The notes under the pieces are model-generated. The model was given only the letters and a program-made list of their open reading frames with translations, made no database searches and was not told where the DNA came from. Positions 11,353-62,469 of a DNA stretch of 64,000 nucleotides are shown one piece after another. A program made the translations under genes and the position numbers. Source of the DNA: Hemileia vastatrix (Eukaryota > Basidiomycota > Pucciniomycetes > Pucciniales > Zaghouaniaceae); contig JASXTE010000002.1 in the NCBI GenBank assembly GCA_030280995.1, positions 5,267,683 to 5,331,682 of the forward strand, read 5' to 3'. How positions within the stretch are numbered: the first letter of the stretch is position 1; every line of letters starts with the position of its first letter.

Positions 11353-11357
11353 CTTTC

Positions 11358-12534: not shown

Positions 12535-12536
12535 AT

Positions 12537-12550
12537 TGGGGGTCTTTCCT
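12537..12550 (+). other. Candidate primer binding site of copy 1
   Basis: TGGGGGTC begins two bases after the LTR, the usual place and TGG start for a tRNA-primed minus-strand initiation site. Copy 2 keeps ATTGGGGG at the same place (minus strand, about 59359). The tRNA is not identified. Confidence 0.4.
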
Positions 12551-13042: not shown

Positions 13043-13393
13043 ATGAGTGCTCCCCAGGATAGTGTAAGTGAACAGCCTGCTTATAATACCAGGTCTAAAG
13101 CTAATAAAAACTTTCCAGGACATCACCATGGAGGGACAACAGTACCCCCAGCCAGAAAGCATGAGTATAGAGGAAAAGGACGCCCTCTTAAAAAAGATAA
13201 CTATCAAAAAGACGTCTCCTCCTCTTCAGGATCAACTGTCCCACCTGGCCAAACAGGTTCTGAAGCTAGAGGAATCAAAATCTCTCATGTTCAAAGAAGT
13301 AGAGCAGTTGCAAAACAATTGCAAGGTAGGATTTCAGCAGATGAATCAGGCAATGGCAGAATTAAAGGGAGGCCAGCCCAGTCAATCAAATAA
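13043..13393 (+). CDS. 5' ORF (frame 2), basic 116-residue reading frame of copy 1
   Basis: The start MSAPQDSV... is followed by YNTRSKANK, a motif often seen near the N-terminus of fungal gypsy Gag proteins. Copy 2 keeps the same start and NTRSRADK (minus strand, 58830-58760), which argues that this beginning is real. The rest of the frame is basic and low in structure. It overlaps the frame-3 coiled-coil ORF, so only part of it is likely to be translated, or the two are joined by an unseen frameshift or intron. Confidence 0.4.
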   Translation: MSAPQDSVSEQPAYNTRSKANKNFPGHHHGGTTVPPARKHEYRGKGRPLKKDNYQKDVSSSSGSTVPPGQTGSEARGIKISHVQRSRAVAKQLQGRISADESGNGRIKGRPAQSIK

Positions 13394-13589
13394 GCAACCC
13401 CCTACCCAAGGAGGGTCCACTCACTCCCAGGAGAAAATCCTGGTAGACAAATGGAAATGGGACTGGTTTCACCAACAGTGGACAAGCCACAGTTGCAACA
13501 GGGATCCGCCCCCTCATCTGACTTCCTCAGCTCACCCTTACAAGGGAAAAAAGCGCCAAAAATCAGGACTGGCAACCATCCCTTGGTAA
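13128..13589 (+). CDS. ORF1 (frame 3), coiled-coil protein overlapping gag-pol of copy 1
   Basis: The ATG at 13128 sits in a strong CACCATGG context. The product is about 153 residues: a short N-terminus, then a charged, heptad-like stretch (SIEEKDALLKKI, LSHLAKQVLKLEESK, FKEVEQLQNNCK) typical of a coiled coil, then a Gln/Pro-rich tail, ending TAA 13587-13589. It overlaps the gag-pol frame by about 195 nt, and a heptamer GGGAAAA at 13544-13550 is in the correct phase for a -1 shift into gag-pol. It is probably an N-terminal part or partner of Gag; the role is not known. Confidence 0.5.
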   Translation: MEGQQYPQPESMSIEEKDALLKKITIKKTSPPLQDQLSHLAKQVLKLEESKSLMFKEVEQLQNNCKVGFQQMNQAMAELKGGQPSQSNKQPPTQGGSTHSQEKILVDKWKWDWFHQQWTSHSCNRDPPPHLTSSAHPYKGKKRQKSGLATIPW

Positions 13590-18901: not shown

Positions 18902-19013
18902 ATCTAAATAATACTGTTCATTCAGTATATGTATTATAAAAAATTTTTTATTTTATTATTTCATTCCTTAAGATTAATTAAAATGTCTTAACATTTTTTT
19001 TATTGTTTTTTTT

Positions 19014-19025
19014 GGGGTGAGGGAG
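19014..19025 (+). other. Polypurine tract of copy 1
   Basis: GGGGTGAGGGAG immediately precedes the 3' LTR. It is the expected plus-strand primer site, and the same sequence precedes the 3' LTR of copy 2 (28795-28806, minus strand). Confidence 0.6.
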
Positions 19026-20202
19026 TGTCAGCCTAAATATCCTTAGGACTGAGTATTTCTTATGCTTAAAATTAGATAACCTTAACTAGATTAAGCTTAT
19101 ATCTTAAAAATAAGGTTAAAATAATAATATATATTATTTTATTATATATATATATAATTATTATTCTATTATATAATTTATAATAGTTTAAATAGCTTAT
19201 CCATGGCCTAATAATACTTATTAAGGTGGTAATGGAGTCATAATATACTTATCTTAATTGATATGAAGTAATTATTGACATACATAAGCTTATATGTATA
19301 CATAAATCTCATATTCAGTGAAATATGCAGTATATTATGTATATTTAGGTATATAAGTGGGTTTTAGCCCCTTAATAGCCTATAACCTTTGTTTTTCTGC
19401 TTATTTTAGGTCATATGGAGGAAATCAGTGGATTCACAACGCCTACAGAAGCATAGACACCTATATCAGGCGCATACACCCAGTTTGGACAACTAAAATT
19501 ACTTCCTTGGATGGTTATTCACGGATTTATGGGTTGGAAAGATGTTTTTGGGTTAATGTGGATGCTTGCGGATGTTATTGGGGGCTTGGACATTTTATTT
19601 GTTTCCTTTATATGCTTTTAGTTTCATTAAATCTCTTTTTGATCATTTATTTTACCTGTTTCTTTATGGTATCCGCTTTTATCTGGGATTTCTATTTATG
19701 GTATGACTCTGTGTTATTATTAATAGTGATGGAGGGTCCTTACTGGAGGTCTGAGTGTTGAAACTGCTTGAAGTGGACGCCATGGGGAGGTGATGGGCCC
19801 TCACAGTGCTGTAATTGCCGGGGATAGCAGTGACATCATCTGGATTGAAGGTCTGTGCACTCCAGTGGATTTGGGTATAAGTAAGGAGGGATTTTGACGG
19901 TTTATTATCATCATTCAATTACTACACTTCAAACAAACATTACACTACAATTATTAGTATTCAGAAATATATTATAAAGCCCTTATAAATTGATATTATC
20001 TTTATAATAGCTATAACTATATTTTATTCTTCTATTTTCCACCACTAGCACGCATTTAAATCCAAGTATTGTGAGTTTAATTTGAGTATAACTATTATAT
20101 TGATCTTCCCCTGAGGTTTAATCACTAAATCATTTATTAATAAGTAGTAGGACCATAAAATAACACTATTATATCATACTTATATACTAGACTGTACTGA
20201 CA
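19026..20202 (+). repeat. 3' LTR of copy 1
   Basis: It is 1177 bp, the same as the 5' LTR except for the A at 20097, and is followed by TSD CTTTC at 20203-20207. Confidence 0.96.
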
Positions 20203-20207
20203 CTTTC

Positions 20208-20500
20208 TCCCCTTGTAAAGCTTCTCAAAAGACCATTCCAAACTACCTCTAAAACACCCCTATACCCCCTAAAATACCCCCCTCCTCATTTTTTAACAGA
20301 TGATTGTTAAGAATTTTTTTTAGAAAAAGAGGAGAGGGGGGGTAGGGGGTTTTGGAGTGGTATAGAGAGGGTTTTGTGGGGGTATAGGGGGAATTGAGGA
20401 GGTATAGGAAGGGGTTCGAGGGAGTTATAGGGGGGGGGTGGAAAGGGGGGTTAGAGGCAGCCAAAGAGAAGGGAAAGGGGGGATATGTCCATGCCAAGGA
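20208..20500. repeat. G-rich minisatellite-like tract of H1
   Basis: A C-rich stretch (20208-20285) changes to a strongly G-rich stretch (20330-20480). The switch centres on an imperfect hairpin around AACAGATGATTGTTAAG. Repeating pieces of the form GGGGGTATAGGG and GAGGTATAGG are visible. The same arrangement, longer and clearer, occurs in H2 at 54420-54990, between the Tet-like and transposase genes. Confidence 0.65.
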
Positions 20501-21130
20501 GGGGTGAATTCAGGAAAAACAACCAGGCCATGAAGAATAAAGAGTAGGAGGGAGAGAAAAAAAAGGAGAGAAAAAAAAGATTATTTTACCTTGAAAATGA
20601 AAAACAAAACCACTTACCAGAAAAATGAGAAAAAAATGAAAAAAAGAAAAAGAAAAAAAAGACAATTGGAAAATATGAAAATAAAAAGGAAAAAATTGAC
20701 TTAGTTGAAGAGATGAGTTTAGAAAAAAATAGACTTCAAATTATTTGAGGGATGTTTGAGAAGAAGAGGAAAAGGATATGAGGGATGAATGAAAAAAAGA
20801 ATGACTGAAAAGTTATGCAATAGCTGAAAATATGTGACTTCATGTTGAGGTGGCAAACAAATACAAATGAGAAAGGTAAAAAGAGACTTTAACAGAAAAT
20901 TCAAAATAAAATTCAATATGCAAAAATAAAATTAAAAAAGCAAGAGAATTTCACATGCAACTTGATCATTTGAAGAGTATGAAAAAAATTAAAAGTTTTT
21001 TTTTAAGAAAAGTTGGAGTATTATTGGCATAATGATGAAGTGTATCCCAGTGGGAAGTAAGATTAATAGTAGATAAAAACAAAATGAATTTTGTAATAAT
21101 TTAAGAAAAAATCACTAAATATCCCATAGT
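20501..21130. other. A-rich purine spacer downstream of the H1 transposase
   Basis: Runs of GAAAAA and AAAGAAAAAG dominate, and no gene is visible. It corresponds to 54990-55545 in H2. Confidence 0.5.
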
Positions 21131-22365
21131 GCCAGTGTGATTGGAAGAAATTTTACCCATATTCTAGGGGTTTGAGAAATAGAAGTGTTGGATATAGTGG
21201 GAGGTGTTTCAACTTGCTTATCTTCATACAACTCAACCATTGATCTTTGAGGTCAGAAAGTAGGTTATGAAGTATAGTGAGACACAGAATCCAGTTAATC
21301 ACTGCCTCTATTTTGGAATCATTCCTAAGAGGATTTCTTAATTTTCTTAAAATGTAAAAAGAACCTTTCAAGATTCCAATAGAATTTTCAATATTGACTC
21401 TTGACTTTGCCAAATGATTGTAAACTTGGAATTTTGACTTTCATCAGATGCTACTACTCAAAGAACAGGAAACACATAATATCCATTCAAATAAGTAGAA
21501 TATTCCAGAAGATACTGATCTTCATCAAAGAATTCTCAGGTTATATTGAAATTTTCATTCTTTGAAAGAGGTAGGAGTCATAACATGATTCAGGATAGCC
21601 AGTGAAGAAAGATATAATTTTTTTGTTTATGTCACAAATAAGCTGAATGAAAATTGAATATCTATAGAGAAGATATAGTTGTTTGTTTTAGATTAAAAAA
21701 GAATAAAAGTAAGTAAAAATAATGTATGTCTTTTTAAGGTCAAAGTAATTTTTTTGAACTTGAGCAGGTTTCTGGCTCAAAGGAATAGTAGTACCATCTA
21801 AAAAACCAATACATCCTGGGAATTCCTCTGCTTGCAAAAACCTGAGAAGATTCAAGTCACTCTTCTTTAGTTGGCCAGGTGAGAAGTATAGATTCCAAGA
21901 AGTTGATAGAAGTGATGCATTGTTTTGTATAAGTGTTAACAGAGCCATAACCTACATCAAACACATTTAAAAACATTTTAAGGCAGCTCCATTAATATTG
22001 GAACCCAAACAACATAGTGTGACAGCTCATTGAATTGAAGGATCATGTTGTGGTTTCAAGAATTATTGTGAAAGAAAGGGTGATCCTGAATTAGATAAAG
22101 CAATTTAAGGAAACATTCCTGAGAAGTCCTGAAAAACTTTCTAAAACTGGGAACAGATAGGTTAAGAAGTGTTTGGATGGTTTACTTGAAGGTATGAAGT
22201 GCTTGAGGCTTTCTTGGAAGAAGGTAATGTTTCCTGGCCACTTTTAATAAAAAAAATCTTCTTCAAGATCAGAATCAGAATCAAAATAAGAGTCCAAGAG
22301 GAGATCAAGAGCCATGAAGTCATTAATTGATGTAGCTTATCACAATTTGAGAGTGAGAAAGTCAT
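21131..22365 (-). pseudogene. PIF/Harbinger transposase, DDE_Tnp_4 type (H1), decayed
   Basis: Minus-strand pieces keep the catalytic surroundings of this family. EEFPGCIGFLDGTTIPLSQK (first Asp) is in 21948-21688. NIENSIGILKGSFYILRKLR, with the expected catalytic Glu, and LTILHNLLSDLKDQW are in 21413-21153. The middle piece with the second and third conserved Asp region is damaged (about 21420-21690). Upstream remains of the N-terminal exon are at 22365-22100. A long intron-like gap follows LKK in the first block. The gene is broken by several stops but collinear with the transposase of H2 (56774-55545). Confidence 0.8.
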
Positions 22366-22499
22366 GATTCTTATATGGTATAAAGATATAAATGATGTAT
22401 GATGTTTTGAGTTATAAAGTGTTATACTGCAGAGTGCTGTGTGTCAATGGAATGATGCTGACAAATCAGTGAAATGGGACATTATGGTGAAATCAGCAC

Positions 22500-22667
22500 T
22501 TTTGGTTGAGAAAGTTCAGATTTGAGTGAAATAAGTGACTTATTTTATTTTGAAGTTGACCAGTGTTGGGGAAAGTGTGTTTTGGAAATCTTCACTGAAA
22601 TAGGTGTGGATTTGGTCAAAACTTGGTGCAGATTTGAAAGTGTAGATTTGCCAGAACTTACACCCCA
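22500..22667. repeat. Right terminal region of H1
   Basis: The outermost bases read, inward on the minus strand, GGGGTGTAAGTTCTGG. This matches the left-facing terminus at 27016 (GGGGTGTCAGTTCTGG) and continues with AAATCT in both. Subterminal motifs such as AAATCAGCACTTTTGG occur at about 22492-22510 and again next to the other termini. The end abuts a TTTATC-type array. Confidence 0.6.
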
Positions 22668-23981: not shown

Positions 23982-23986
23982 CATAT

Positions 23987-24411
23987 CATCTTTTTTTAAT
24001 TTAATGGTTTTTTATTTCATAGCTGCACAGGGGAAAGAGGGATTAGTGCGATCTGAAGAACAACTGGGGGAAAGATACCTTTGAGAAGATCTATGAAAAT
24101 GAGGCATGTTAAGATATTTGATGATGATTACAAAAAAGAGAAGACATGAGCAGATGAGATGGGGAACAATCTGAATGGATGGAGGAAATAGACAGGATGG
24201 GAATGCACAGAAAGGTAGCAAGTCTGGCACATCAAGATAGATGTCCAAGATGTGTTTATGAGAAATTGAGAATAAAAATGTCAAATAAGAGGTGAACATT
24301 GACACACAAAAGTCTAATAACCCAATTATTAATGAAAATAATTGTGGAAGATAATTGGGGTATAACAAATTTTATCTGAAATTAAATTAATTGCAGATTC
24401 CTTAACATTAA
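23987..24411 (-). pseudogene. Harbinger-type 5' end with start of a Myb/SANT-like gene
   Basis: On the minus strand a terminal repeat AGGGGGTGTTAATG starts at about 24411. A leader follows (CCCAATTATCTTCCACAATT, shared with H2 at 44640-44665 and continued at 50240). Then comes the region of the Myb gene start (PHFHRSSQRYLSPSCSSDRTNP, compare the H2 product start). It breaks off after AAATTAAAAAAAGATGATA, the point where the H2 exon goes on. It serves as an uninterrupted reference for the H2 leader that G1 splits. Confidence 0.7.
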
Positions 24412-24609
24412 CACCCCCTTTTAATTTTATTATTATATAAATTATATATAAATTTAAGTAAGCATAAATAACATTATATTCTATAAAAAATGTACACATT
24501 ATTATTTATTTAATTACATATATTAATGATTAATTTATTATAACTTCTTAATATTATAATTATAAGTAATAAGAATTACTTATACTGTAATGTAACTAAT
24601 TAGTTAAGT

Positions 24610-24809
24610 AGGGGGTATAAAAGCTAGTAATTTGTAATTATTTTAAAGGTATTTTGTAACACAAAAAGAAAGCCACAAACTTAACATCAATTCTAAGTGA
24701 GAAGCTGTTTTGGGGGCACAACATGGCATATTTTAAAAAATAATCATGGTTGATTTGGGGGAAAAAAGAGGTACTTTGAAATGGAAGATTTCTAACTTTG
24801 ATACCCCCT
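24610..24809. mobile_element. Short Harbinger-type MITE (~200 bp)
   Basis: The left end AGGGGGTATAAAAGCTAG and the right end, read inward, AGGGGGTATCAAAGTTAG form inverted repeats like those of H2 (AGGGGGTATCAAT). There is no coding capacity. Flanks AGT and ATT do not match, so the target duplication is unclear. Confidence 0.5.
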
Positions 24810-44580: not shown

Positions 44581-44697
44581 AGGGGGTATCAATAATCAGG
44601 GATCCACAATTAAATTAATTGCCCAAAATAATCTGCATACCCCAATTATCTTCCACAATTATTTTTGCTAATAATTGGGTTATTAGACACTTTAGGT

Positions 44698-45606
44698 TGT
44701 GGTGATCAAAACCTGGGTAGGCCTTTGGAGTGCATATTTGGGGGGATTTGGTATGTAGGGTGTTATTGGGGTTATGGTGTCATTAGTGGATTTTTTCATC
44801 TTTAGGTAATAGTTAGTAGTGTTTATAAAGGCTTAATCTAGGGTCACTTATTATTTCTCAGCTTAATGTCCTTTCTTTTCTCTTCATTTTGGTATCCCTA
44901 TGGGTGTTACCTTGTTTTATAGGGTAGTTAGGTGTTGTTATTGGTATTTATCGGAAGTTTATTGCTTAGTGGTGCTTATGTAGGCTTAAGCTAGGGTTAC
45001 TTATTATGTCTTAGCTTATTTTCCTTTATTTTATTTTCATTTTGGTATGTCTTATGTGTGTTTGTCTTGTTTATTAGTGAAGTTATGGGTTTTTAGGGTT
45101 TTTATGGGTTGTATGGGTGTTTTAGGGCCTAGAAGCGGCCTGCCACCCCCTAAGCGGAGGCCCGCCTTGAAGCATGGGTGGGTGCTGGGAAAGCGCTAAA
45201 ATGCACTTTTATGCATGAAAAAGGATGGGAAAGCTGTATTTTGGGTGGGGAATTGGTCAGGGTGGTCTGTGCACTGGCTGTATGATGTGTGTGTGGGAAG
45301 AGTTTTAGCAAATCATCTTATCTCTTTACTCATCAACTCTCTGTTTCTCACTGTCTCATTGGATGGTGTTTTGTTGGAATATATTACTGTTAATTTCAAC
45401 TCTTTCTGGTAGTCTGTCTGGGACTATTATCTTTCACTTTTAAAGAGGTCAAGAGTGTTTAATTAGAGGGTCTAGCAAACAGATCTCCAATTTGCTGCAA
45501 CAGGTAAATCTCACTTGTTTTTATAAAGGGACAGGGGTTATTCTTTCTGGTTTTTCTCCAACTCCCTTGGTCAAGGACTATAGCTAGTACTATAGGATTG
45601 TCTACA
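44698..45606 (+). repeat. 5' LTR of G1
   Basis: It matches 49336-50231 through GGGTAGGCCTTTGGAGTGCA, GAAGCGCTAAAATGCAC-type and TGGTCAAGG.CTATAGCTAG stretches. A more distant copy is the solo LTR at 4249-5322. Confidence 0.88.
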
Positions 45607-45610
45607 TTTC

Positions 45611-45628
45611 TGGTGCCCAATGTGGGGT
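45611..45628 (+). other. Primer binding site of G1
   Basis: TGGTGCCCAATGTGGGG starts four bases after the LTR. It closely resembles the tRNA-Lys-type primer sites of other LTR elements (TGGCGCCCAACGTGGGG). The tRNA assignment is an inference. Confidence 0.55.
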
Positions 45629-45844
45629 CAAATCTGTTGGCTTTTTGGAATCTCTGTTGATTTAGGCTTCTCTCTTTGGTGGATCTCCTTTGGTGGATTT
45701 TGAATTTGGTGCTATATCTCTTTGTGGTTGGTCTAGGGGTCTTCTTTTCTGTTGGATTTGGTCCCTCCTATGTCTTTAAGGCTATTGGGGGGGACTTTGG
45801 CTATCTTTGGTGGAGATTGGAGGCTGTAACTTGGATTTGCTAGG

Positions 45845-46198
45845 ATGGTTAGGATTCAGTCTTGGGATGGTTCAAGGCTTTTGGGGGAGGATTCAAAGGG
45901 TTTTTTATCTAAGTTTGAGGTTGCTTCTGAGATTGATGGGGCCTCACTGTTGGACATGGTTAGGCAAGTAATCTTTTTCATTGGTAATAGGGAGGTGGAG
46001 AAGGAAGTTTCTGGTATGGCAGGATATAGGAGTCAGGACTGGGGAAAGTTGAAGATTGAAATGATTAAAAGGTGGCCTACTACTTTCTCAATGATGGATC
46101 TTCATGGGATTGCTAGGAAGTGGGAATTGAAAGGTGGTGTAACTTCTCTTTCTCAGTATGGGGAATTTATGGAGGAGTTTTGGGAGGCTCTGGATTAA
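45845..46198 (+). CDS. Gag-like protein, N-terminal part (G1)
   Basis: The 117-residue ORF begins MVRIQSWDGS and contains DMVRQVIFFIGNREVEKEVS, GYRSQDWGKLKIEMIKRW and GGVTSLSQYGEFMEEFWEAL. This is the capsid-like helical pattern of Gag in rust and other basidiomycete gypsy-type elements. It stops at TAA just where the next piece (46284) should follow in another reading. Gag would form the particle that packages the RNA, with enzymes supplied in trans by a related element. Confidence 0.7.
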   Translation: MVRIQSWDGSRLLGEDSKGFLSKFEVASEIDGASLLDMVRQVIFFIGNREVEKEVSGMAGYRSQDWGKLKIEMIKRWPTTFSMMDLHGIARKWELKGGVTSLSQYGEFMEEFWEALD

Positions 46199-46283
46199 CT
46201 GGTATATAATGATTTATTACAACATGAAGATTAGGCCAAGTATGTATTTTGGAGTTCCATGTAGAGATTTAAAGGTGTAGGCT

Positions 46284-47225
46284 ATGGAGATTTTTTTCAA
46301 GGCTGACATGATGAAGACTCTTCCAAATGGGGAGAATAGGATTCCTGATATGGCTGTTTTAAAGGAGGTTATTTTGGTATATTTGGATGGTATGAAGGAT
46401 AGGGATGTGGAATCTGGAGAGGAAATACTGTTTGACAGAGAGGTTCAGAGGACTGTGGTGGAAATTTTAGCTTCTGGGGAGGTGTTGGAGCCATCAATTT
46501 CAGAAGATGGTGATTCTGATGATGTTTGTGAAGCTTATTTTTCTTTTCCAGAGGATACCATGGGAACTCAGGAATGTGTTTCACTGGACATTTTGGAGAT
46601 GTATGCACTAGGGGATAAGTGTATTTCCTTAAGTTTGGATGAATTATGTGAGAAGGAGGATTTTTCTGGTCATGATGAAAGATTTTGGGATATTGAGAAG
46701 GAATCTGTGGTGGATGAATGGTTGTTGAGTGATGATTATTTTTCTATCTCAAGTTCAGATAATGGCTTATTGGAGGAGGATGTATCAGTTGAATTTTTAG
46801 ATGGACAGAAATATTCTGTCTTGGATCTTTTTCTAATAGAGGATGATTATTTTCAGGTGGTTCCCTCAAGATCAGAAGGTCTCTTCTTGGAGGAGGATTT
46901 TTATTTTGATATTATGGATGTTATTCTGGAGGATTTTGCAGATTCTAGGCAAGATTCCTATAGGGAAGAGGAAAATTGTGATATTTTGGATGTCACTGGT
47001 ATGGAGATTGATTTTAAAGATGTGGTGGAGGTTCCAGATGTTTCACAGGGTGAAGAATTTATTGATTCTGGTGATGTGAACTATGGTAGACTCAGTGTAT
47101 GGAGGAGGATTGAAGATTTTTTTGGAGGTCTGATGTTGGGACATCAGAATTGGAAGAGGAGCTTAGGATGTTCAGGCCCTAGGGGCAAACTTATTGGTTT
47201 CAACTTTTGGATTTCAAGAATCTGA
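46284..47225 (+). CDS. Acidic Gag-like protein, C-terminal part (G1)
   Basis: A 313-residue ORF. Its start (KADMMKTLPNGENRIPDMAVLKEVI) resembles the Gag segment after the capsid helices in related elements, where a pre-ORF frameshift and stops (46199-46283) have split the gene. From residue 45 it is very rich in Asp, Glu and Ser with no zinc knuckle or enzyme motif, and ends with a short basic tail. The acidic part is unlike usual Gag; its function is not known. Confidence 0.55.
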   Translation: MEIFFKADMMKTLPNGENRIPDMAVLKEVILVYLDGMKDRDVESGEEILFDREVQRTVVEILASGEVLEPSISEDGDSDDVCEAYFSFPEDTMGTQECVSLDILEMYALGDKCISLSLDELCEKEDFSGHDERFWDIEKESVVDEWLLSDDYFSISSSDNGLLEEDVSVEFLDGQKYSVLDLFLIEDDYFQVVPSRSEGLFLEEDFYFDIMDVILEDFADSRQDSYREEENCDILDVTGMEIDFKDVVEVPDVSQGEEFIDSGDVNYGRLSVWRRIEDFFGGLMLGHQNWKRSLGCSGPRGKLIGFNFWISRI

Positions 47226-49335
47226 TTCCTCCAAAATGAGGATAAACTACTTAATTGTTTTGGTTTTGCTTAATTTGGCCTCTATGTATTTGGTCAGGTT
47301 TTTTTTTGTTGTTGTATCCAATTCTTATCAGTCTCTCTGATTCAAGTATCTATATAAAAAAGGAAAAGAAAAGAAAAGAAAAAAAATCTTAGTATAATGA
47401 AGATGGAAGAAAAGAAAAATTCAAGTGAAGATGGGTATTATATTTAAAAAAAAAGAAGATAAAAATGATGATCATTGGTTTTATCTAACCTCTGGCATGA
47501 GTTTAAACTGCAAAATTTTATTTCTAAATTGGATTTTTTTGGCTTTCAAGAATTTAAATGGTTTTTTAATGGTTTTGGATTTTTTATGGGAGAAGATTTG
47601 TGTTGGAAAATCCTTTTGTTAGAAGGTACCCAGGGGTGGGGCTTCTAGATTTTATTTTTGCGAGTTTGGGGGTAACTGATGGGCTGGCTGCTCTAACAAC
47701 AGTTACCCCAGATTGTCTGTTTCAAACCCCTTCTCTTAATTTTGTTGAATTCTAGTATTGGTTTTTTTCTTTAACAGGCTTATAGTCCACCATGACTTTA
47801 CACTTGAAATTCTTTTGGTCTTCAAGTTCTGGACCCCTCATGCTTATTGGTTTTGTTTAATTTTGTTGGATGTTGTGTTTTGTTAGAAGGTACCCAGGGG
47901 GGGCTTCTAGATTTTATTTTGGCAAGTGTGGGGGTAACTGATGAGCTGGCTGCTCTGTAGAACAGTTACCTCAGAATGTCTGTTTCAAGCCTTTGCTTTT
48001 TTTCTAGTTGAATTCTTGTGTTGTTTTTTTGTGATTCAGGTTTTTAGTCCTCTATGACTTTAAACTGGATTGCCTTGAATGTCTTTTGGCAATTTTGGAT
48101 TGGTGGTGGATCACTGGTGGTCCCCTATCATTTTAACTTATTGGAGGGAGCCCACCCAGTTATCTTTTCTGTAGACCTGGAGCTGGCTTTTCTATGTGGT
48201 TTTAGGGTGTTGGCTGTGAAAGTGGTGGATTCAAGATTATTTTCTTTTTTCTCTTTTTTTCTTTTAATTTTTTTATTGAGGCTATGTTTGTTCAAAGGCT
48301 CAAGATAGGGCTCTGGCAATGTTTTTGGTAGAAGAGGAGGAGTCAAAATAAAATAAAAAAATGTTTTTAGGTGTGACCACATCAAGGTGCACTTGGATGT
48401 GGGTAAGGTATCAGAGGATTAGCCCATCAATTGGCTGGGGGATACCATTTTATTTTGTTTTATTTGTTAAAGGAGGTTAAATGTTTTGGCTTTGATGGTT
48501 TTTGGTTTGGGAATTTATGGGCTATATCTTCAAGATTTTTTTTTCTGTAATGTCCTTCAAGACTTTAAACTGATCTTTTATTTATGGTATATATCTTTAA
48601 GATTTTTTTCTGGAAAGTCCTTTAAGACTTTAAACTGATCTTTTAATTATGGGATCAAGATTTTTTGATGGAAAGTCCCCCAAGACTATAAACTGAGGAA
48701 TGGGAGGCAGTGCAAGGTGGAAGTTTAAAGGCAGAGGATCCAAGGGGGAACTTCTGAATTTTGTAAAGGCAATTTTGGTTGTGACTTATGGGCTGGAAGC
48801 TCTATATACAGTTACCCCAGAAAGTTATTTACTTCTACAAATATTTTTCTGGTTTATCTCTGGCTCTGGGCTCTGTGATTATGGTTTTTGCAGTCCCCCA
48901 AGACTATAAAATGAGGATTTTTTGGAGTCCCCCAAGACTATAAAATGAGGGATGTTAGTATCCCAAGACTTTAAAATGAGGGTTGTGAGTCCCCCAAGAC
49001 TATAAAATGAGAAATTTTTTATGCTGGTAGAAGTTTATAGTCATGAAGACTGGTCAACTGGATATCACTTTTCATTTTTAGAGGCTGGTACAGCCAGAGT
49101 TGGAATTCAGAAACAGAAGAAAGAGATTTTTTTTCACAGGGATAGATTGATTTTAAAGGCATGGTGCAAGAGAAGTTATAAAGAAAAATCTTGGATTGCT
49201 GGTTCAGAAGTTCACTTAGGATGGAATAGGATCTGGTGGAAGAGAGAAATGGGCTGTTTGTAAAGATTCTGGAGAGGTGTTTGAACATGGTTTTTGGCAA
49301 AGGAAGAATAGAGACATTCTTGATTGGAGGGAGGA
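47226..49335. other. Non-coding interior of G1
   Basis: There is no RT, RNase H or integrase signature in any frame. Internal repeats are present. A segment with GTTAGAAGGTACCCAGG, GGGTAACTGATG and GCTGGCTGCTCT occurs twice (47617-47760 and 47883-48000). A motif CCCCCAAGACTATAAA(A/C)TGAG recurs about seven times between 48540 and 49010. A purine tract GGAGGGAGGA precedes the 3' LTR. Confidence 0.6.
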
Positions 49336-50231
49336 TGTGTTTATCCAAACCTGGGTAGGCCTTTGGAGTGCATATTTGGGGGTATTTGGTGTGTAGGGTG
49401 TTATTGGGGTTATGGTGTTATTAGTGGATTTTTTTATCTTTAGGTGATAGTTGGTAGTGTTTATGGAGGCTTAAGCTAGGGTCACTTTTTATGTCTCAGC
49501 TTAATGTTCTTTCTTTTCTCTTCATTTTGGTATCCCTATGGGTGTTACCTTGTTTTATAGGGTAATTAGGTGTTCTTATTGGTATTTATCGGAAGTTTAT
49601 TGCTTAGTGGTGCTTATGTAGGCTTAAGCTAGGGTCACTTATTATGTCTCAGCTTATTTTCCTTTATTTTATTTTCATTTTTTTATGTATTATGTGTGTT
49701 TATCTTGTTTATTAGTGAAGTTATGGGTTGTATGGGTGTTTTAGGGCCTAGAAGTGGCCTTCCCTCGCCTAAGCAGAGGCCCGCCTTGAAGCAGCGTGTT
49801 CCCCTGTGCACTGGGGAAGCGCTAAAATGCACTTTTATGCATGAAAAATGCTGGGAAAGCTGGATCTTTGGCGGAGAATTGGTCAGGGTGGTCTGTGCAC
49901 TGGCTGTATGATGCGTGTGTGGGAGGATTTTTAGGAAATCATCTCATCTCTTTACTCATCACCTCTCTGTTCCTCACTGTCTCATTGGCTTGTGTTTTTT
50001 AAAATATATTATTGTTCATTTCAACTCTTTCTGGTAGTCTGTCTGGGACTATTATCTTTCACTTTTAAAAAGGTCAAGAGTGTTTAATTAGAGGGTCTAG
50101 CAAACAGATCTCCAATTTGCTGCAACAGGTAAATCTCACTTGTTTTTCTAAAGGGACAGGGTATATTATTTCTGGTTTTTCACCAACTCCCTTGGTCAAG
50201 GCCTATAGCTAGTACTATAGGATCATCTACA
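49336..50231 (+). repeat. 3' LTR of G1
   Basis: It starts TGTGTTTATCCAAACC and ends GGATCATCTACA, 896 bp. The H2 leader resumes directly at 50232. Confidence 0.88.
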
Positions 50232-50429
50232 ACGGTTGAATGTTCACCTCTTATCCAACATTTTTTACTCAATTTTTCATAACCACATCTTGGACTACCC
50301 TCTGGATATGCCTTCTACCTTTCTGCACACTAACATTCTCATCACATCCTGTCCATTCTCTCTGCTCAGAACCCCTCACCATCTCATCTGCTTGTTTCTG
50401 CTCCTTTTCATCTTCATTTATATTTTAAC

Positions 50430-51891
50430 ATGCCTTGTCGTCCTAGATCTTCTCAAATGCAGCTATCACCCAGTTGTTCTTCAAATTCCACTACTAACTC
50501 TTTCCCCCTCTCAGCCAAGAAATCTAAGAACTTTCAATTAAAAAAAGATGATAATCTCATTCTTATCAACTTGCTGAAAACCAAATCTAACTATGATTCT
50601 TGTTTTGGTACTGAGTATGCAACTAAAGTAGGACCTCCCCCAGCATCAAAAGTTAATGGCTATCTTCTAATGGAAAATTAATTACGGAATAAGACCAAGG
50701 GAAAAATTGATATTTTTCCTAAACAGATGTCTGAATGCTTCAAGCATTACCAAGCCAAATACAAGAAGACAAAGGCTCTTTAATCTTCCACTGGTTTTGG
50801 GGTTACCAACATCAATATCACTAAGGGCATCAAATCCATAGACAATAAACTTGAATCTTTATGTCCTACCTTTAAAGAGATGGATGCAATTTTTGGAAAG
50901 CGAGCCGATGTTAATCCTGTAAAAATGTTGGATGGAGAAGATCCTATCTCCGAACATGATGTTGAAGAAAATCTTTTCCCATCCTCTTCCTCCACTCAAG
51001 CCTCCCCTCATCTGAATGAGACCAATCTAGATAGCTTTTCTGTAGATCCTATTGGAGATTTAACCCAACCAAATCTAACTCAGGTCAGTTTCTTTTTTCT
51101 TTTATCTTATCAATTCTATTTTTTTATTTAATTATCATTTTCTTATTTCTTAAAAGGCTAACAAAGAAACCCAGGATCCTCAATCAACTGAGTCTGAAGG
51201 TAGCGACAATGATGAGGAGGAAAATATGACCTTGAAAAAAAAGCGTAGGGCTTCAAGTAGTCTAAATTTCCAGTCCAAAAGAAGACAAAAAAGTGATATT
51301 TCATCACAAACCCCTTTTTTGTCTATGGATCAATTTTTAGAAAAACGTGATGCTGGTAAGTGATACCATACCTCTTATTACTTTACTCTGCTTTTATTAT
51401 ACTTTATGTTAATTTTTATTATCACTCTAGAACAAGTGAAAATTGCTAAAGAGACTCTAATCTTTGAAAAGAAGAAATACAAGCTCTCTTTAAGAAGGGA
51501 TGATAGGCTACAAGATTTAGAAGAGAGGAAGTACGAGCTCTCTTTACGGAAGGATGATTGGGCCCAAGATTTGGAGGAGAAGAAGTTTGAGTTAACTCTA
51601 AATATTGAAAAATCAAAAAAGGAGAAAACACTCGAACATCAAAACCTATTAGAGCAGATGAAATATAAGTTTGAACATGAAGAAAATTCCAAGAAGAAAG
51701 ATTTCTTGATAGAATGTGTTAAAGCCAATAAATCTGTAGAGGAAATTGAATGTTTAAAGAAATTGTTTGATGACTATTTTGTTTTATTTCTCTCACAATT
51801 CAACTGTTCATATTTATTTATACATAAAATTTACAATAATTTCCTGTATTTCATTACTCTATCAATCATTACTTCAATTTTTGTATTTTAA
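50430..51891 (+). pseudogene. Myb/SANT-like DNA-binding protein gene of H2
   Basis: In PIF/Harbinger elements the second gene is a Myb-type protein that brings the transposase to the ends. Exon 1 (50430-51083) encodes a Ser-rich start, the helical domain (KKDDNLILINLLKTKSNYD, KQMSECFKHYQAKYKKTKAL) and the family tail STGFGV...LCPTFKEMDAIFG. Introns of 73 nt (51084-51156) and 75 nt (51356-51430, GTAAGT...CTCTAG) lead to an acidic/basic exon 2 and a coiled-coil exon 3. Exon 3 has an ~18-residue repeat (KYKLSLRRDDRLQDLEE, KYELSLRKDDWAQDLEE). Two in-frame TAA codons in exon 1 (50679 and about 50779) make this copy a pseudogene. Confidence 0.78.
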
Positions 51892-51939
51892 TGTTAAATA
51901 TTCTTTTTTTAAATAAAATTTTCATGTCTCCTTTGAAAA

Positions 51940-52350
51940 TTTGACAATCCCCCACCCCTGGATTTTTTTGAAGTAAGGGGTGGGTATCACCAAAATTCTT
52001 TCATGTCATGAATCTTGAAAGTCTTATATGAAACTTTGGCTTTAATACCCCCTGCATTTTACCAGTATCTCCAAAATTCTTACAAGTCAAGAATTTCACA
52101 AGTCTTATAAGAAATTTCGGCAATACCCCCCCTGGAATTTATTGAAGTAAGGGACGGGTATCACCAAAAATTTTTCACCAAAATATTTACAAGTCAAAAA
52201 TTTTACATGTTACATTTGAAAATTTGGCAATACTCCCCCTATATTTTATTGAAGAAAGGGGTGGGTATCACCAAAATTTTTACAAGTCTTCAATTTTGAA
52301 TGTCAGATTTGAAAATTTGGCAATACCCCCCCTGCATTTTATTGAAGTAA
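51940..52350. repeat. Minisatellite between Myb and Tet-like genes
   Basis: About five ~70-100-bp units carry CAATACCCCCC, TTTTATTGAAGTAAGGG, GTGGGTATCACCAAAAT and ACAAGTC. Fewer units sit at the equivalent place in other Harbinger fragments (8210-8400 and 60660-60860, minus strand), so the copy number varies. Confidence 0.75.
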
Positions 52351-52657
52351 GGGATGGAATTCATCTAAATTTAATATAATTACATAAATTATTAAATAAA
52401 TATCTAATATATATCAATTTCCCTAGTTTAAAGTAATGAAAATTCCTCAAGACAAAATGCAGATCAAATCTAGATACAAAAGTTTGGGACTTTCCGCAGG
52501 TATAGGCTAGAGGAACCCCATGAAACAAATAAATGTTATCATGATTACCTGTTATAAAACCCAGGGTCGTTGGCCCATTACTTTAGTTGAGGAAATTGAT
52601 ATATAAAAAATATTTATTAAAAATTTATGAAAAAATATAAAGTTTTTGATGACAACT
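52351..52657. other. Conserved non-coding segment 3' of the Myb gene
   Basis: This segment (with AAGACAAAATGCAGATCAAA and GGCTAGAGGAACCCCATGAA) is kept in reverse at 8045-8160 and 60500-60620. Its conservation exceeds that of the minisatellite. It may be a shared 3' untranslated or regulatory segment of the two convergent genes. Confidence 0.5.
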
Positions 52658-53990
52658 CTAATCCCCATACTTTTTGGATATAGATAAAGTTTTTTTGAAT
52701 TGATTAACTTTACCTTCTTTCTTTACCTTGTTGATTCTTTGAATCAACTTATGACTGATTTGAAATGAGCAACCAAAATGTGTTAAATCTTGACAGGATT
52801 CCAAACCAGGAGGAGCTTTGGTTTTTTGATGATTATCCTGAGAAGAATTCCAAATAGTCTCAATGATACCATTTCCCAAACCAAAATCAATGATGCACCG
52901 GTGGTCTAGAAAATACAAACCATGTCCTTTTATTTTAGCTGGAGATGGTATTAGTTGGCCAGTTATCAGATTGATATATGAGAATATACCAAAAGTAAAG
53001 AAATTGGTGTCATTCCTATCAATATGAATCCTATTTTGGAATACAGAATGAGTGATAATAACATTAGAAAATAAAATATATTGGTGGCTGATATCTTTCC
53101 ATTTGGAGTCACCAATTTGGTATTCCAACTTTGGTTGAAAGTTCATGATTTTTTTCAAATGCTTTATTACAGAGATTTTTGAGTCAAAGAGCAAGAAAAG
53201 AGTTAAAGGAAGGTAGAGTGTCCCATAAGCAAAAATCTTCATCTTTTTGAGATTTAGTGATATTCTTGAGCAATGAATATATGCCTATATAATTGAAATA
53301 ATTGAAATGATATTAAGAATGGAACAAAAATTATTAGACATACCAAAAGAATATCCTTTAACAAAACCAGGTCTCCAAGCAAATCCAATCATGATACCAT
53401 GCAAAAAATTTGTGTTCCTTATAGGTAACCAAACCAAAGCCATTTGATAAAGAGTTATGATAAGATTGGATAGTTGATTAAAAGATTCATCTTTCACACC
53501 ATCAAATGAATTAACTTCCAAAATGAATTGAGCCTTAAAAGTATTACTGATAACTGCAACAACTTTATCATCTGCAAATTTGGTTAGATATTTGATATCT
53601 TCTGGTAATTTTTTTAGGTATTGAATTTTTTTTATCTACTTTAGTTTTATAAAAAAAATGTTTGGGATGACGAAAAAAACTTTTTCAGAGAATTTTTTTT
53701 TTCAGATATCTTTTCTTCTGATGAAACTGATTATCTTTAATTTTTTTTGATGATTTAGAAGATGATTTTTTTTTCAGATATCTTTTCTTCTGATGAGACT
53801 GATTATCATTAAATTTTTTTGATGATTTAGAAGATGATTGTATTGAGGTTGATTGTGAGGAAGATTATTAAAAAGATGATAAAGAGGATAAAGAGGATAA
53901 AGATGAAGATGATAGAGAAGTAAGGGGTGAATCTGAAGAATACATTTTTTTGATCTGAAAAAAAATTTAAATTTCAAAAAAAAATTTAAC
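52658..53990 (-). pseudogene. Tet-like 2OG-Fe(II) oxygenase gene (H2)
   Basis: Exon 1 (about 53990-53343) has a Ser/Glu-rich start, then KIQYLKKLPEDIKYL and the block VISNTFKAQFILEVNSFDG, continuing to GFAWRPGFVKGYSFG. A 59-nt GTATGT...TATAG intron (53342-53284) follows. The core exon has LFSNVIITHS, the iron motif H-I-D in RIHIDRND, GLYFLDHRCIIDFG, W-NSSQDNHQKTKAPPG and HFGCSFQISHKL. TET/JBP-related enzymes oxidise methylated bases in DNA; here that activity is inferred only from family. A frameshift near 53130-53160 splits the core exon. It is homologous to 11025-9784 throughout. Confidence 0.8.
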
Positions 53991-54419
53991 ACATTTTTTT
54001 TAAAAAAAAAACTCACCTAATAATATCTTTTAAAATAAAATTTAAAGCAAAATCCTTTTAAAAAAATTTAAAAAAAAAAATTAAAATTTTCAGTAAAAAT
54101 TATTTCAAAAAAAAAATTTCAATGAAAACCTGAAGTTTGGTTATAATAAACCTTCACAGAAAATCCTGACAAAAAAATTAAAAAATAAAATAAAAAAATA
54201 AAAAAAAATTCAGTAAAAGAAAAATCAAAACAAAAAAATTAAAAAAAAAATTATATTCAGTAAAATTATTTGGAAGAAAAATTAAAAATTAAAATCTAAA
54301 CCTTTTTTGTTTTGTAATTAACAGGGAAAATCCTTAACAGAATGTAAAAGATATTTTTTTTTCTAAAATTCTGCCAAAAAAAAAAAATTATAAAAAACAA
54401 ATTTTTAGTATGTTTTTTA
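53991..54419. other. A/T-rich spacer in H2
   Basis: Near-homopolymeric AAAAAATT sequence with short direct repeats (CAGTAAAA, TTAAAAAAAAAATT). No gene. Confidence 0.5.
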
Positions 54420-54990
54420 GAAAGTAGGTAACCCCTCTTTAACTCCCATAAAAGTCCCCTTTCCCCCCCTTTATTTCTCTGAAATACCCTATAAAATTCC
54501 TCCCTCCTTGCCTCAAAACCCCCCTAAACTCCCCCCCTTCACCCCTCTTTGTATGTCCCAAACCCCCCCTTTCCCCCCCTCTTTAGCTGCCTCAAAGCCC
54601 CCCTCCTCCCCTTCCACTCCCCATAAACCACCTCTACCCCCCCCCTCCTTCTTAATGAACAATCAGTAATGATTGTTCATTAAGAAGTAGGGGGGGTAAA
54701 GGCAGATTAAGGGGAGTGGAAGGGGGGGGTTTGAGGCGGCTAAAGAGAGGAGAAGGGGGGAGGGTTGAGGCACCTAAAGAGAGGGGAAGGGGGGTCATGA
54801 GGTGCCTAAAGAGAGGGGAAGGGGGGGGTCATGAAGGACCTAAAGAGGGGGGAAAGGGGGGATTTGGGACAGGTAAAGAGGGTGAAATAAGGGGGACTTG
54901 AAGAAGGTAAAGAGAGGGGAGAAGGAGTGACTTGAGGGAGGTAAAGAGAGAGGAAAAGGGGTGAAATGAGGCAGCTAAAGAGGGTGAAGG
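54420..54990. repeat. C-rich to G-rich strand-switch with hairpin and minisatellite
   Basis: The plus strand is C-rich from 54420 to 54648 and G-rich from 54688 to 54980. The switch is a hairpin with arms CTTCTTAATGAACAATCA and its complement (about 54648-54690). The G-rich side consists of about eight 31-36-bp units with the core CTAAAGAGAGGGGAAGGGGGG; the C-rich side carries related units in complement. The same design occurs in H1 (20208-20500). Confidence 0.8.
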
Positions 54991-55544
54991 AAAGAAAAAA
55001 AGAGAAAAAAAAAGAGAAAAAAGAGAAAAAAAAACAAAATTAGTCTAACCTTGAAAATAAAAAAAAAGAACTTACAAAAAAAAACAGAAAAAAAAAAAAA
55101 AAACAAAAAAAAGCAAAATAAAAAAATTCATGATTAGCAAATAAAAAACAAGAAAAAAGAAAAAAAAAACATACCTGGTGAGATGAGTTGATAAAATAAA
55201 AGTAACCAAAATATTTGAGTGGTGTTTGAGGAGAGGATGAAAAGGATATGAGTGATGAATGAAAAAAAAATCACTGACAAAATATGGGATTTCAGAAAAT
55301 ATGCAATTTCATGTTAAGCTGGTGAAAGAAAACCAATGAGCCATCCAAAAAAAAAATATTCACTGTAAATTCAAAAAAAATGAATGTGCAACAAACCAAA
55401 ATACCAAACCAAGTGAATAAATTACACAAAGAGGAAATTTGGAGAGTACAAAAAAATAATTTAAAAGGGTGGTGAAGAGAAATTTTTGAGAGTAATAGGC
55501 ATAATTACAGAGCATATGCCGATTGAATGAATGTTTTGTGATTT
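54991..55544. other. A-rich purine spacer downstream of the H2 transposase
   Basis: Runs of GAAAAAAA dominate. It corresponds in position and composition to 20501-21130 in H1 (shared pieces GATGAAAAGGATATGAG and ATGCAATTTCATGTT). No gene. Confidence 0.5.
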
Positions 55545-56774
55545 AAGGGAGGGGAGAGCCAGCGCTGGTTCAGGATCCTCTTCTTCATAAAGATCATTCC
55601 ACTCATCCTTTAAATCAGCTAGGATATTGTGGAGTGTAATTCAAGTCATGATACAATGATTTTTAGTTTTGATCTCCAATTTTTTTGGAAATTGGATTCT
55701 GAGCTACGGAAGACTAGAAAATTGTCCCTTTAAAATACCTATAGCATGTTCAATTTGTACTCTTTATTGGGCAAGGTGATAATTAAAGGTAGTTTCGGGG
55801 TCACTTTCTAAACTTGCACCACAGAAAGCAGGGATAATGTACTTTCCACTTGCATAGGCTGAGTCTGAAAGCAGGTACTGAGATTTGTCAAAGTATGAGT
55901 CAGGGGTTTGAGAAATCCCCATTCTTTGGAAGATGGAAGAGTCATGACATGAGCCAGTGCAGCCACTATGAAAAGCAATAAGTTTCTTATTGACATTGCA
56001 TACAAGTTGAACAGCAATAGAGTATCTAGAAAGAAGATAAAAAGTTAGTTTATGAAGGATGAGAAATTGGAGAATATTTTGAAGAAACCCTTTTTTGAAA
56101 TCAAAATAATGGTTGCCATCATGAACAGGCTTTTGACTCAATGGTATAGTTGTGCCATCAACAAATCCTACACAGCCAGGGAAACCTTCAGCTTGCATTA
56201 CTTGAGAGGATTAAAGTTGCTATTCTGGAGTTGGCCAAGCAAGTGTTTGAGACTTGAGGGAAAGGATAGAAATCATACAGAGCTTGGTGTATAATATCAC
56301 GGTACCAAATCCTATGTTAAAGAGATTATCCAAATGTCTTACAGCAGCACTGTTTCTATTTGAGCCAAAGCGACATAGTGCAACAGCAAGTTGGATGGCA
56401 GGATTACGCTGTTTGTAATGGGAGTTGTTATTAAAAATAGGATTACTGGAGATGAGTTGATAAAGTTTGAAGAAAGAATCGGGAGAAGTTCTAAAAAGTT
56501 GGGTGAAGTTTAAATGAGGAATTTTGAGAATTGAGGCCAGATCATATCAGGGATCATGATAAAGATTTGGCCCCCTGGTGATGATGTAACTCTTTTTGGA
56601 AAGAAAACACATATATGCTAAAGCATGTTCCAAATCAGAGTCAGATATATAGTAAAGAACTAAAAGAAAGGTAATAGCATTAATTGTTGAGTGAAGTAGC
56701 TTCCTAGTAGAGAGGTGTTTCATTGTTGCTGGTGGAAGGGTTATATGATGAGAGAAGTGGGAATTCACTTCCAA
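55545..56774 (-). pseudogene. PIF/Harbinger transposase, DDE_Tnp_4 type (H2)
   Basis: The gene can be followed over its whole length. It has an N-terminal region starting near 56774, QRNPAIQLAVALCRFGSNRN (helical domain), EGFPGCVGFVDGTTIPLSQK (first Asp), CTGSCHDSSIFQRM (second Asp), YLLSDSAYASGKYIIPAF, RVQIEHAIGILKGQF with the expected Glu, and ITLHNILADLKDEW. An intron (about 56095-56026, acceptor TTTCTAG) interrupts it after the first catalytic block. At least five in-frame stops (for example before YDL, in the linker before QAEGF, and after NYHLAQ) make it inactive. Catalytic residues themselves are kept. Confidence 0.87.
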
Positions 56775-57103
56775 ATGTACAGTTGGGGTGTGTAGATATG
56801 AAAAAAACTTAAGTGTTTGCCACCAAAATTAAGTAGCATAGAGTTAGGAAAGACTTCAAGATGGAATCAGCAATTATGAGTCATGTGACTTTCTTGCAAA
56901 TCCATCATGGATGAGATGAGTTTGGGATCAGGAATTAGGAATGGAAATTGGGGTATAAGAGGCAGGATAATGCATTATTGTGGATTCCTTATCCACTAGC
57001 CACAGGGCTAGTGGATAAGAATCTTCTATAATTAATAATGTCTGATCCTGGGAAAAAAAATTCCTGATTCCTAATTGTGGATCCCTGAGCATTGATACCC
57101 CCT
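56775..57103. repeat. Right terminal region of H2
   Basis: Upstream region of the transposase gene and the terminal inverted repeat. An internal palindromic stretch TCCTTATCCACTAGCC..GGCTAGTGGATAAGAA lies at about 56985-57022 and could form a stable hairpin close to the end. Confidence 0.6.
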
Positions 57104-60475: not shown

Positions 60476-62469
60476 GACTTTGTGTTGCATAAAAAGTAAT
60501 AATGGAAAAATTAATTTGTTTTATGGGGTTCCTCTAGCATATACCTGTGAAAAGTCCCAAACTTAGTTTCTAGACTTGATCTGCATTTTGGCTTGAAGAA
60601 TTGTCATTTATTTAAAACTACTAAATTTGACATATATTATTTATTTATTTATTGATTTATTTAATTATATTAAATTTTGGTGACTTTCACCCCTTACTTC
60701 AATAAAATTCATGTGAGGGTATTGCCAAATTTTCAAATCTGACATGAAAAATTGATGAGTCGGAAAAATTTTGGTGATACACACCCCTTAACTAATTAAA
60801 ATGCAGGAAAGGTTATTACCAAAGTTAACAAAAAGATATAGAATTTAATTGAATTAGCCCTATTTATAAATGTGAGTTAGTGGTGAGGTAATATAAGTAT
60901 GTTGGTGATGAGGATTTTTGCACTGGTGTCAGTATTATTTTACCATCTGAAATTCTAAAAGTGCAACATGTTAGAGTCCAGTGAAGAAAAACGGTGTTAT
61001 AAGACTCTCATGATATAACTACTTTTGATAAGATTAAAAGTAACTTTTAAAGTCATTCCCCAACCATTAACTAAGAAAACAATTAATCTATTAAAAAAGT
61101 CAAGTAATTTTTTAATGCCCTCATAAGATTGGACATTTTTTACACATTCCATAATAAAGTTTTTTTAATTTTTTGCTTTTACAAATCATTACTTGCCATT
61201 TATCTTTGAAAATCACCAGCTTTTCTGTTCTCTGAGTGAAGATGAACTCTTTCCATCTCTTCTGCATCAAATCTTGAATTTTCAAAATTTTATTGAAGCA
61301 AAAAAAATTTCACTCTGAATCTAAGGCCCTTTGATCTTTCATTAGAATATGATCAGACTTAATCCACTCAAAGCCAAGTGAATTTTTCGCAATAGAAGGT
61401 TATTCTGAATAAATTGAGTAAAAAATATTGTATTAAAGAAGCTATATAGTTACCAAATATTTCTTATATACTTTTTTCAAAAAAAATATTATGGGAGGAA
61501 AAAAAGATGGTTGAAGTATTACCATTTTTTAAAATATGATTCAAGTTCATTGGAGTTGAGGCTTGAAAATTTTGTTTGGAATTTGAGCGAGAGGGCTCAG
61601 GAAGTTCATTTAAAGCAGTTTCTAAAGAAGGATTGTCATTGCTGTAAACATTATTCTTTTTTAAACTTTGAGTTTGAGTAGGAGGAAAATAGAAAAGAAA
61701 AAAAAGGATAAGAAATTTAGCAAATAATTTATGAAAAATGAAAAATTTAACATGCATAAATGAATTGGGGCTTTAAGGACTCATATCTTCCCTGAAATAA
61801 TTGTTATTCTTGGTAGTTGGGGTCATCTTCAGGTGAACTATGGTTAGAAGCTGGAGGAGAGTGATGTCCTTTAAGTACAGGTGTGTTGTGAGGACTATTA
61901 GATGGCTGAGAACCAGAGTGTATATCATTGGTAAAATCATGTAGAAACCAAGGTTTGGTATCAACTCAGGAACCATAAAGAATATCTATTTACTCATAGA
62001 AAGAACACATGAAATTGAGCATTTTGGAAACAGTAGTAATTCCATTTTCCAAATCATCATTATAAATACAAAAGTAAATGGAAGTAAAAGAGAAATGAGC
62101 CTTTTTATATTTTGATTGATAAATTTTAAACCTCTCCATTTGCTTAGAATTAATGTAGAATCTCCTTTTTGTTTTCCTTTTTACTTCATTTTCCATAAGA
62201 AAGAAGCCATTGACATTTGATGAAGGTGGATTTCCAATTTGGCTGGACTTCTCACAACCAAAACATGCATCATAATTTGATTTAATTTTGAGGAAGTTAA
62301 TGATGATGAGATAACCTTCCTTTTTTATCTGTCCAGACTTTGATTTCTCAGGTAAGAGCATTGCATTATGGGAAAACCTTTGTTATCAAACATTTTTTTG
62401 AGTTGCATTTTGAGTTTTGTATTTTCTGGGAGGAATTATGAAACTGGTATTTTAAAAGAACAGAGATTA
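60476..62469 (-). pseudogene. Harbinger-type fragment with decayed Myb/SANT-like gene
   Basis: On the minus strand, in normal order: exon 1 (about 62440-61990) with LIIINFLKIKSNYDACFG, NGFFLMENEVKRKTKRR and KQMERFKIYQSKYKKAHF. A middle part (61976-61773) and a Ser/Asn-rich part (61757-61464, FPPTQTQSLKKNN and MNLNHILKNGN) follow, and then the 3' segment and minisatellite (60860-60480). It breaks at the copy 2 LTR on one side and at a CACTA-type end (62470) on the other. Several stops and frameshifts. Confidence 0.72.

What the first reader, a model, noticed from the sequence alone, without database searches (positions are those of the whole stretch)
44581..57103. Harbinger-type transposon carrying a Tet-like oxygenase with its Myb and transposase genes
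H2 has inverted ends (AGGGGGTATCAAT...), a 3-bp ATT duplication and three genes: Myb/SANT-like (+), Tet-like 2OG-Fe(II) oxygenase (-) and DDE_Tnp_4 transposase (-). The borders are set by comparison with the same gag site in the intact chromovirus copy 1 (13625-13645), so the oxygenase was moved as internal cargo and is not just a neighbour. Established: TET/JBP-like genes are expanded in basidiomycetes and have been tied to KDZ-type transposons. A PIF/Harbinger carrier is, to my knowledge, not the standard picture. Inference: the element may use base oxidation to undo host methylation of itself or to mark its ends.
Basis: partly seen in the sequence, partly recalled or inferred. Interest (0 to 1): 0.92.

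Follow-up and report, generated by a model that had tools for sequence, protein, structure and literature searches.

The report
Decayed rust transposon carrying TET oxygenase
A broken jumping gene, apparently from a rust fungus, carries a gene for a DNA-oxidising enzyme between its own ends; this kind of element was described in print in 2025, and this copy looks like a patchwork of two transposon families.

Summary
The element is real. 44581-57103 has inverted ends (29 of 31 bases match). Between them lie a third gene (+), a Tet-like 2OG-Fe(II) oxygenase (-, PF20515) and a DDE_Tnp_4 transposase (-).

Corrections: (1) 44700-50233 is a nested LTR retrotransposon, so the element proper is about 6,984 bp. 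(2) This copy is dead: all three genes carry stops, and the oxygenase also a frame change. (3) The duplication is not settled: ATT fits the one empty site, TA fits both ends and a related short element. (4) No profile match supports Myb/SANT.

It is not new in kind. TET+ Harbinger elements of rusts ("PHISTA": transposase, TET, non-Myb third protein) were published in December 2025 (PMC12730594). The transposase groups with Puccinia proteins in a rust clade.

Added here: a second, diverged copy (A) has TET and transposase in the same order and orientation; all three genes show purifying selection between diverged copies; and the spacer beside TET is as close to copies B and C as these are to each other, while the third gene is far more diverged, so H2 looks like a mosaic. 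Self-demethylation is inferred, not shown. The source genome could not be searched.

The parts
44581..57103 (.). H2, decayed TET-carrying Harbinger-type element, 12,523 bp with the nested retrotransposon
   Evidence: inverted ends and genes between them; empty site in chromovirus copy 1
44582..44612 (+). left inverted end
   Evidence: 29 of 31 bases match the right end
57072..57102 (-). right inverted end
   Evidence: 29 of 31 bases match the left end
44700..50233 (+). nested LTR retrotransposon inserted in H2; borders set by eye from the GGTTG repeats
   Evidence: LTRs 90% identical; GGTTG at 44695-44699 and 50234-50238; copy E has a stretch of equal length without the insert
50430..51783 (+). 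third gene (about 3 exons, exon borders by eye), function unknown; stops at 50679 and 50781
   Evidence: relatives in copies B, C and E of the window; no Myb/SANT match; stops
51913..52657 (.). spacer with tandem units of about 93-107 bp; the terminal motif GGGGGTAT occurs 3 times (minus strand)
52658..53945 (-). Tet-like 2OG-Fe(II) oxygenase gene, broken; HxD and distal His present; one intron placed by eye near 53287-53357
   Evidence: PF20515 E 8.7e-13; alignment; lesions
54532..54988 (.). C-rich then G-rich inverted and tandem repeats between oxygenase and transposase
55545..56723 (-). DDE_Tnp_4 transposase gene, 6 in-frame stops; start by eye
   Evidence: PF13359; stops at 56549, 56222, 56213, 55766, 55706, 55643
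9404..22666 (.). copy A: third-gene-like 3' part (+, 9404-9879), TET (-, about 9784-11130), chromovirus copy 1 (inserted, inferred), transposase remnant (-, about 21121-22390), outer end at 22666
7808..9403 (-). copy B, inverted and truncated: outer end 9403, third gene, spacer, last codons of TET
60481..62377 (-). copy C, inverted and truncated: third gene, spacer
23985..24419 (-). copy E: end of the H2 type and start of the third gene
24611..24808 (.). 198-bp element with ends GGGGGTAT (19 of 24 bases match), TA on both sides

Best explanation
H2 is a decayed copy of a TET-carrying Harbinger transposon of a rust fungus, of the PHISTA kind described by Kojima (2025). Shown here: the inverted ends, the internal place of the oxygenase, the same order and orientation of TET and transposase in the diverged copy A, and past purifying selection on the three genes. 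Inferred: in a live copy the transposase, probably helped by the third protein, cut and pasted the element, and the oxygenase oxidised 5-methylcytosine in its DNA, relieving silencing or CpG hypermutation. H2 was then disabled by point decay and a retrotransposon insertion. Its spacer beside TET was probably acquired by recombination with a co-resident family (that of B and C).
For: Ends 29 of 31. PF20515 and PF13359 matches. Copy A: PF20515 E 6.2e-22, transposase remnant in the same orientation. Transposase sister to Puccinia proteins 97/96 within a rust clade 99/96. Selection, H2 against A: TET exon 2 pS 0.75, pN 0.18 (138 codons); transposase pS 0.80, pN 0.33 (159); third gene H2 against C pS 0.73, pN 0.31 (132); codon-position excess p 1.7e-11, 8.4e-9, 5.7e-6. 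Patchwork: H2/C third gene position 3 76/136 against spacer 65/369, p 3.7e-16; B/C 22/114 against 105/564, p 0.90. CpG observed/expected 0.175 in the window.
Against: No intact copy seen; the genome could not be searched. The duplication in the one empty site reads better as 3 bp than as the TA of PHISTA. PHISTA sequences themselves were not available, so membership rests on the transposase tree and gene content. CpG depletion is also seen in the chromovirus (0.172) and has no gene-rich baseline. In copy A the HxD motif reads HxN. TET exon 1 shows weaker constraint (pS 0.39, pN 0.22). No enzyme, expression or methylation data.
Confidence: 0.7

Rival explanations
1. H2 is a separate capture of TET by a canonical, 3-bp-duplicating Harbinger lineage with a Myb-like partner, distinct from PHISTA.
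For: The ATT reading aligns to the empty site without a gap, score 168 against 165 for TA, with only 8 indels in 1052 aligned bases of gag. By eye the third protein recalls Myb/SANT-like proteins (recalled, no test).
Against: No Myb/SANT match in 10 readings. Transposase sister to Puccinia proteins. TA at both ends of H2 and of the 198-bp element, where the 3-bp reading gives AGT against ATT. ATT is not the TWA of canonical Harbinger (recalled).
Confidence: 0.2
2. The low spacer divergence reflects constraint on a regulatory or protein-binding array, not exchange between families.
For: The array beside TET carries three copies of the terminal motif GGGGGTAT.
Against: Between B and C the spacer evolves like codon position 3 (105/564 against 22/114, p 0.90); constraint would make it slower.
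Confidence: 0.25
3. The oxygenase came into H2 as part of another transposon nested in it and was never part of the element.
For: TET genes move between transposon superfamilies in rusts (PMC12730594, section 3.4).
Against: Copy A has TET and transposase in the same order and orientation, strongly diverged from H2; spacer and TET end lie beside the third gene in B as well.
Confidence: 0.05

Closest known systems
TET+ PHISTA (Harbinger) families of Puccinia and Austropuccinia, Kojima 2025, PMC12730594
   Same: Harbinger-type transposase, TET/JBP oxygenase and a third protein between inverted ends, in rusts; H2 transposase sister to Puccinia proteins
   Different: Direct comparison with the published sequences was not possible.
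Nuwa / canonical PIF/Harbinger
   Same: transposase superfamily; an accessory protein beside the transposase
   Different: Per PMC12730594 section 3.1.4, Nuwa has a Myb/SANT protein and 3-bp duplications and encodes two proteins; here no Myb/SANT match and a TET gene
KDZ transposons with TET/JBP (Kyakuja, Dileera, Zisupton)
   Same: TET oxygenase carried by a fungal DNA transposon
   Different: other transposase superfamily, longer duplications (7-8 bp in PMC12730594)

Membership tests
PIF/Harbinger (PHIS) transposons | DDE_Tnp_4 transposase | tested here: met
   PF13359 E 4.9e-12, 7.3e-21 with X at stops
PIF/Harbinger (PHIS) transposons | terminal inverted repeats | tested here: met
   29 of 31 bases
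PHISTA | TA target duplication | tested here: inconclusive
   TA fits both ends and the 198-bp element; the single empty site fits ATT better
PHISTA | transposase clusters with Puccinia Harbinger transposases | tested here: met
   sister to Puccinia proteins 97/96; that these proteins are PHISTA is inferred
PHISTA | TET/JBP gene and a third protein without Myb/SANT | tested here: met
   PF20515; no Myb/SANT match in 10 readings; a missed divergent SANT is possible
Harbinger with Myb/SANT partner (Nuwa, canonical) | Myb/SANT protein | tested here: not met
   no profile match; structure model too poor to help, pLDDT 39.6
TET/JBP oxygenase | HxD...H iron ligands in a PF20515 domain | tested here: met
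   present in H2 and P0001; in copy A HxD reads HxN
TET/JBP oxygenase | oxidises 5mC in DNA | not testable with these tools
   no enzyme data

The most novel reading that the evidence does not exclude
The TET gene with its 3' repeat array is an exchangeable anti-silencing cassette traded by recombination between co-resident Harbinger families of one genome; the array, which carries the terminal motif GGGGGTAT, is the hot spot where exchange, perhaps transposase-induced, takes place.
Probability: 0.3. Interest if true: 0.65.

Novelty: new member of a known kind. Interest (0 to 1): 0.4.

Why it matters
It supports, for an element clearly diverged from its Puccinia relatives (47% transposase identity), that TET genes are kept by selection as transposon cargo. 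It also gives a local, testable footprint of how such genes pass between transposons; Kojima inferred transfers between superfamilies but saw no special sequence at the borders (section 3.4). If the oxygenase protects elements from CpG methylation or hypermutation, it is a counter-defence inside the genome.

Tried and rejected
Reassigned stop codons: rejected, because the 1,816-aa chromovirus frame is open under the standard code. C-to-T hypermutation as the cause of all lesions: looked at by eye only; not all stops seemed to fit, so not claimed. My first account of the oxygenase lesions (two frame changes) was wrong: the change near 53640 is shared by copy A and may be gene structure, and at 53186 there is a stop.

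Led nowhere: IMG/VR scans with the TET piece, the transposase piece and the end motif; GTDB contigs with the TET piece; PDB by sequence with the TET piece, 0 matches at E up to 1, and with third-gene alignment A1, 1 unrelated match at E 0.38; protein search with the third protein, 154 candidates, none at E up to 1. The TET protein search gave 1 protein of 48 candidates. Both structure models were too poor (pLDDT 39.6 and 35.1), so no fold search was run. The repeat finder on the whole window was swamped by a simple repeat for direct repeats. Papers: searches; several listings were capped (for example 12 of 2,654 papers). PMC12730594 was the only listed paper whose title or abstract describes TET-carrying Harbinger elements. 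Iyer et al. 2014 is not held.
Full report
The ends. The inverted ends 44582-44612 and 57072-57102 match at 29 of 31 bases (one search gives 38 nt at 92% with the flanks). From 44581 to 57103 there are 12,523 bp. Of these 5,539 are a nested LTR retrotransposon with one copy of its GGTTG repeat: its LTRs are 90% identical, GGTTG stands on both sides, and copy E has a stretch of equal length without the insert (my count). The element proper is about 6,984 bp.

The genes. The minus-strand piece 52661-53284 matches PF20515, Tet-like 2OG-Fe(II) oxygenase, at E 8.7e-13; 55767-56210 matches PF13359, DDE_Tnp_4, at 4.9e-12, and the transposase with X at stops at 7.3e-21. The oxygenase has HxD and the distal His. 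The third gene (50430-51783) has relatives in copies B, C and E. Ten pieces or readings of it, from H2, B and C, gave no Myb/SANT family at E up to 10; three had weak unrelated matches. Its structure model is too poor to use (pLDDT 39.6), and so is that of the oxygenase (35.1). By eye the third protein recalls Myb/SANT-like proteins; that is memory, not a test.

State of this copy. Third gene: two in-frame stops. Transposase: six. Oxygenase: a stop at 53186 and a frame change near 53120, both absent from copy A, and stops at 53687 and 53867-53870 in the low-complexity start; a frame change near 53640 is shared with A and may be gene structure. So none of the three proteins could be made whole from this copy, unless the assembly has errors.

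Target site. On the ATT reading the joined flanks align to chromovirus copy 1 without a gap at the junction; the TA reading needs a 3-bp indel there, and a reading without duplication a 1-bp one (scores 168, 165, 163; 8 indels in 1052 aligned bases of gag). Against this, a 198-bp element at 24611-24808 with ends GGGGGTAT has TA on both sides, while the 3-bp reading gives AGT against ATT. Of eight ends seen, TA stands directly before the G-run at five (both of H2, both of the short element, outer end of B), TA plus one T at two (22666, 27016), and AA at one (24419). I leave it open, leaning to TA because of the published TA of related families.

Other copies. Copy A: a stretch at 9404-9879 (+) that resembles, also as protein, what follows the third gene in copy C (464 aligned bases, 92 differences), then TET (-, PF20515 E 6.2e-22; 73% identical DNA to H2), chromovirus copy 1 (its two LTRs differ at 0 of 1027 sites; that it is inserted in A is inferred), a transposase remnant (-) and an outer end at 22666. 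The first part of A's third gene was not found; B's outer end abuts at 9403. A direct match between H2's third-gene 3' part and that of C was not found (17 bases only). A has ends of another type. Copies B, C and E are truncated. I saw no complete intact copy in the window, and the genome could not be searched.

Selection. H2 against A: oxygenase exon 2, 138 codons, pS 0.75, pN 0.18; its 5' part, 40 codons, 0.41 and 0.21; exon 1, 105 codons, 0.39 and 0.22 (ratio 0.47, bootstrap 0.29-0.79); transposase 159 codons, 0.80 and 0.33, and 57 codons, 1.0 and 0.30; third gene, H2 against C, 132 codons, 0.73 and 0.31. Synonymous sites are near saturation, so ratios are rough: for TET exon 2 only 213 of 500 bootstraps gave a value. 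Differences concentrate on codon position 3 (TET exon 2: 33, 19, 71 of 138). B against C shows no such excess (17, 12, 12 of 56). So the oxygenase was kept by selection for much of the time since H2 and A parted.

Patchwork. In the third gene H2 differs from C at 76/136 third positions and from B at 41/80; B differs from C at 22/114. In the spacer: H2/C 65/369, H2/B 97/486, B/C 105/564. The contrast for H2/C has p 3.7e-16; for B/C p 0.90. The spacer thus seems to evolve neutrally, and H2's spacer, perhaps with the end of TET (H2/B 20/89), looks shared with the B/C family much later than the third gene. The left border lies near 52161-52191 within a tandem array, so its place is rough; the array carries the terminal motif at 52045, 52123 and 52323. 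Within TET, H2 and A differ less at third positions in the 5' part (48/148) than in the 3' part (71/138), p 0.0012, or 0.017 by permutation over breakpoints.

Placement. The transposase search gave 48 proteins of 5,245 candidates; the best are from Puccinia and Austropuccinia, weaker ones from Phakopsora, plants (Orobanche, Riccia), Pythium, Mortierella and metagenomes. In a tree of 22 rows (query and 21 of the 48) H2 is sister to the Puccinia proteins, 97/96, in a rust clade, 99/96; 8 of 19 inner branches are weak. The host is therefore probably a rust; its species is unknown.

Literature. PMC12730594 (Kojima, December 2025): I read the abstract, passages, Results part 1 of 3, sections 3.4 and 4.2 and the figure legends; not the figures or supplement. 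It describes TET+ Harbinger families in Puccinia species and Austropuccinia, TA duplications, a third protein without Myb/SANT, transfers of TET between superfamilies, and proposes escape from methylation-based silencing or hypermutation. PMC12210899 was seen in passages. The finding is thus a further member of a described kind. I saw no selection contrast between copies or spacer mosaic in the parts read.

Function. The window is CpG-depleted (observed/expected 0.175; H2 right part 0.146; A TET region 1 CpG; A transposase part 0; chromovirus copy 1 0.172). That fits methylation or hypermutation acting on these repeats and would give the oxygenase something to counter, but it is circumstantial and not special to H2.

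Noticed in passing
46281-47225: The nested LTR retrotransposon has an acidic 314-aa frame without a Pfam match; no pol frame was seen in the ORF list. It may be non-autonomous.
   Followed up: partly
13451-18901: Intact 1,816-aa chromovirus polyprotein frame (RT, RNase H, integrase, chromodomain), with LTRs identical at 1027 of 1027 sites: a recent insertion.
   Followed up: partly
25515-27012: A 1.5-kb array of a 6-bp unit (TTTATA), 98% matches.
   Followed up: no
54532-54988: C-rich and G-rich inverted and tandem repeats between oxygenase and transposase; a similar-looking stretch stands beside the transposase of copy A (20216-20500, by eye; only 50 bases aligned).
   Followed up: partly
2410-4193: Long palindromic structure: arms of 418 nt, 92% complementary, 948 nt apart.
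   Followed up: no
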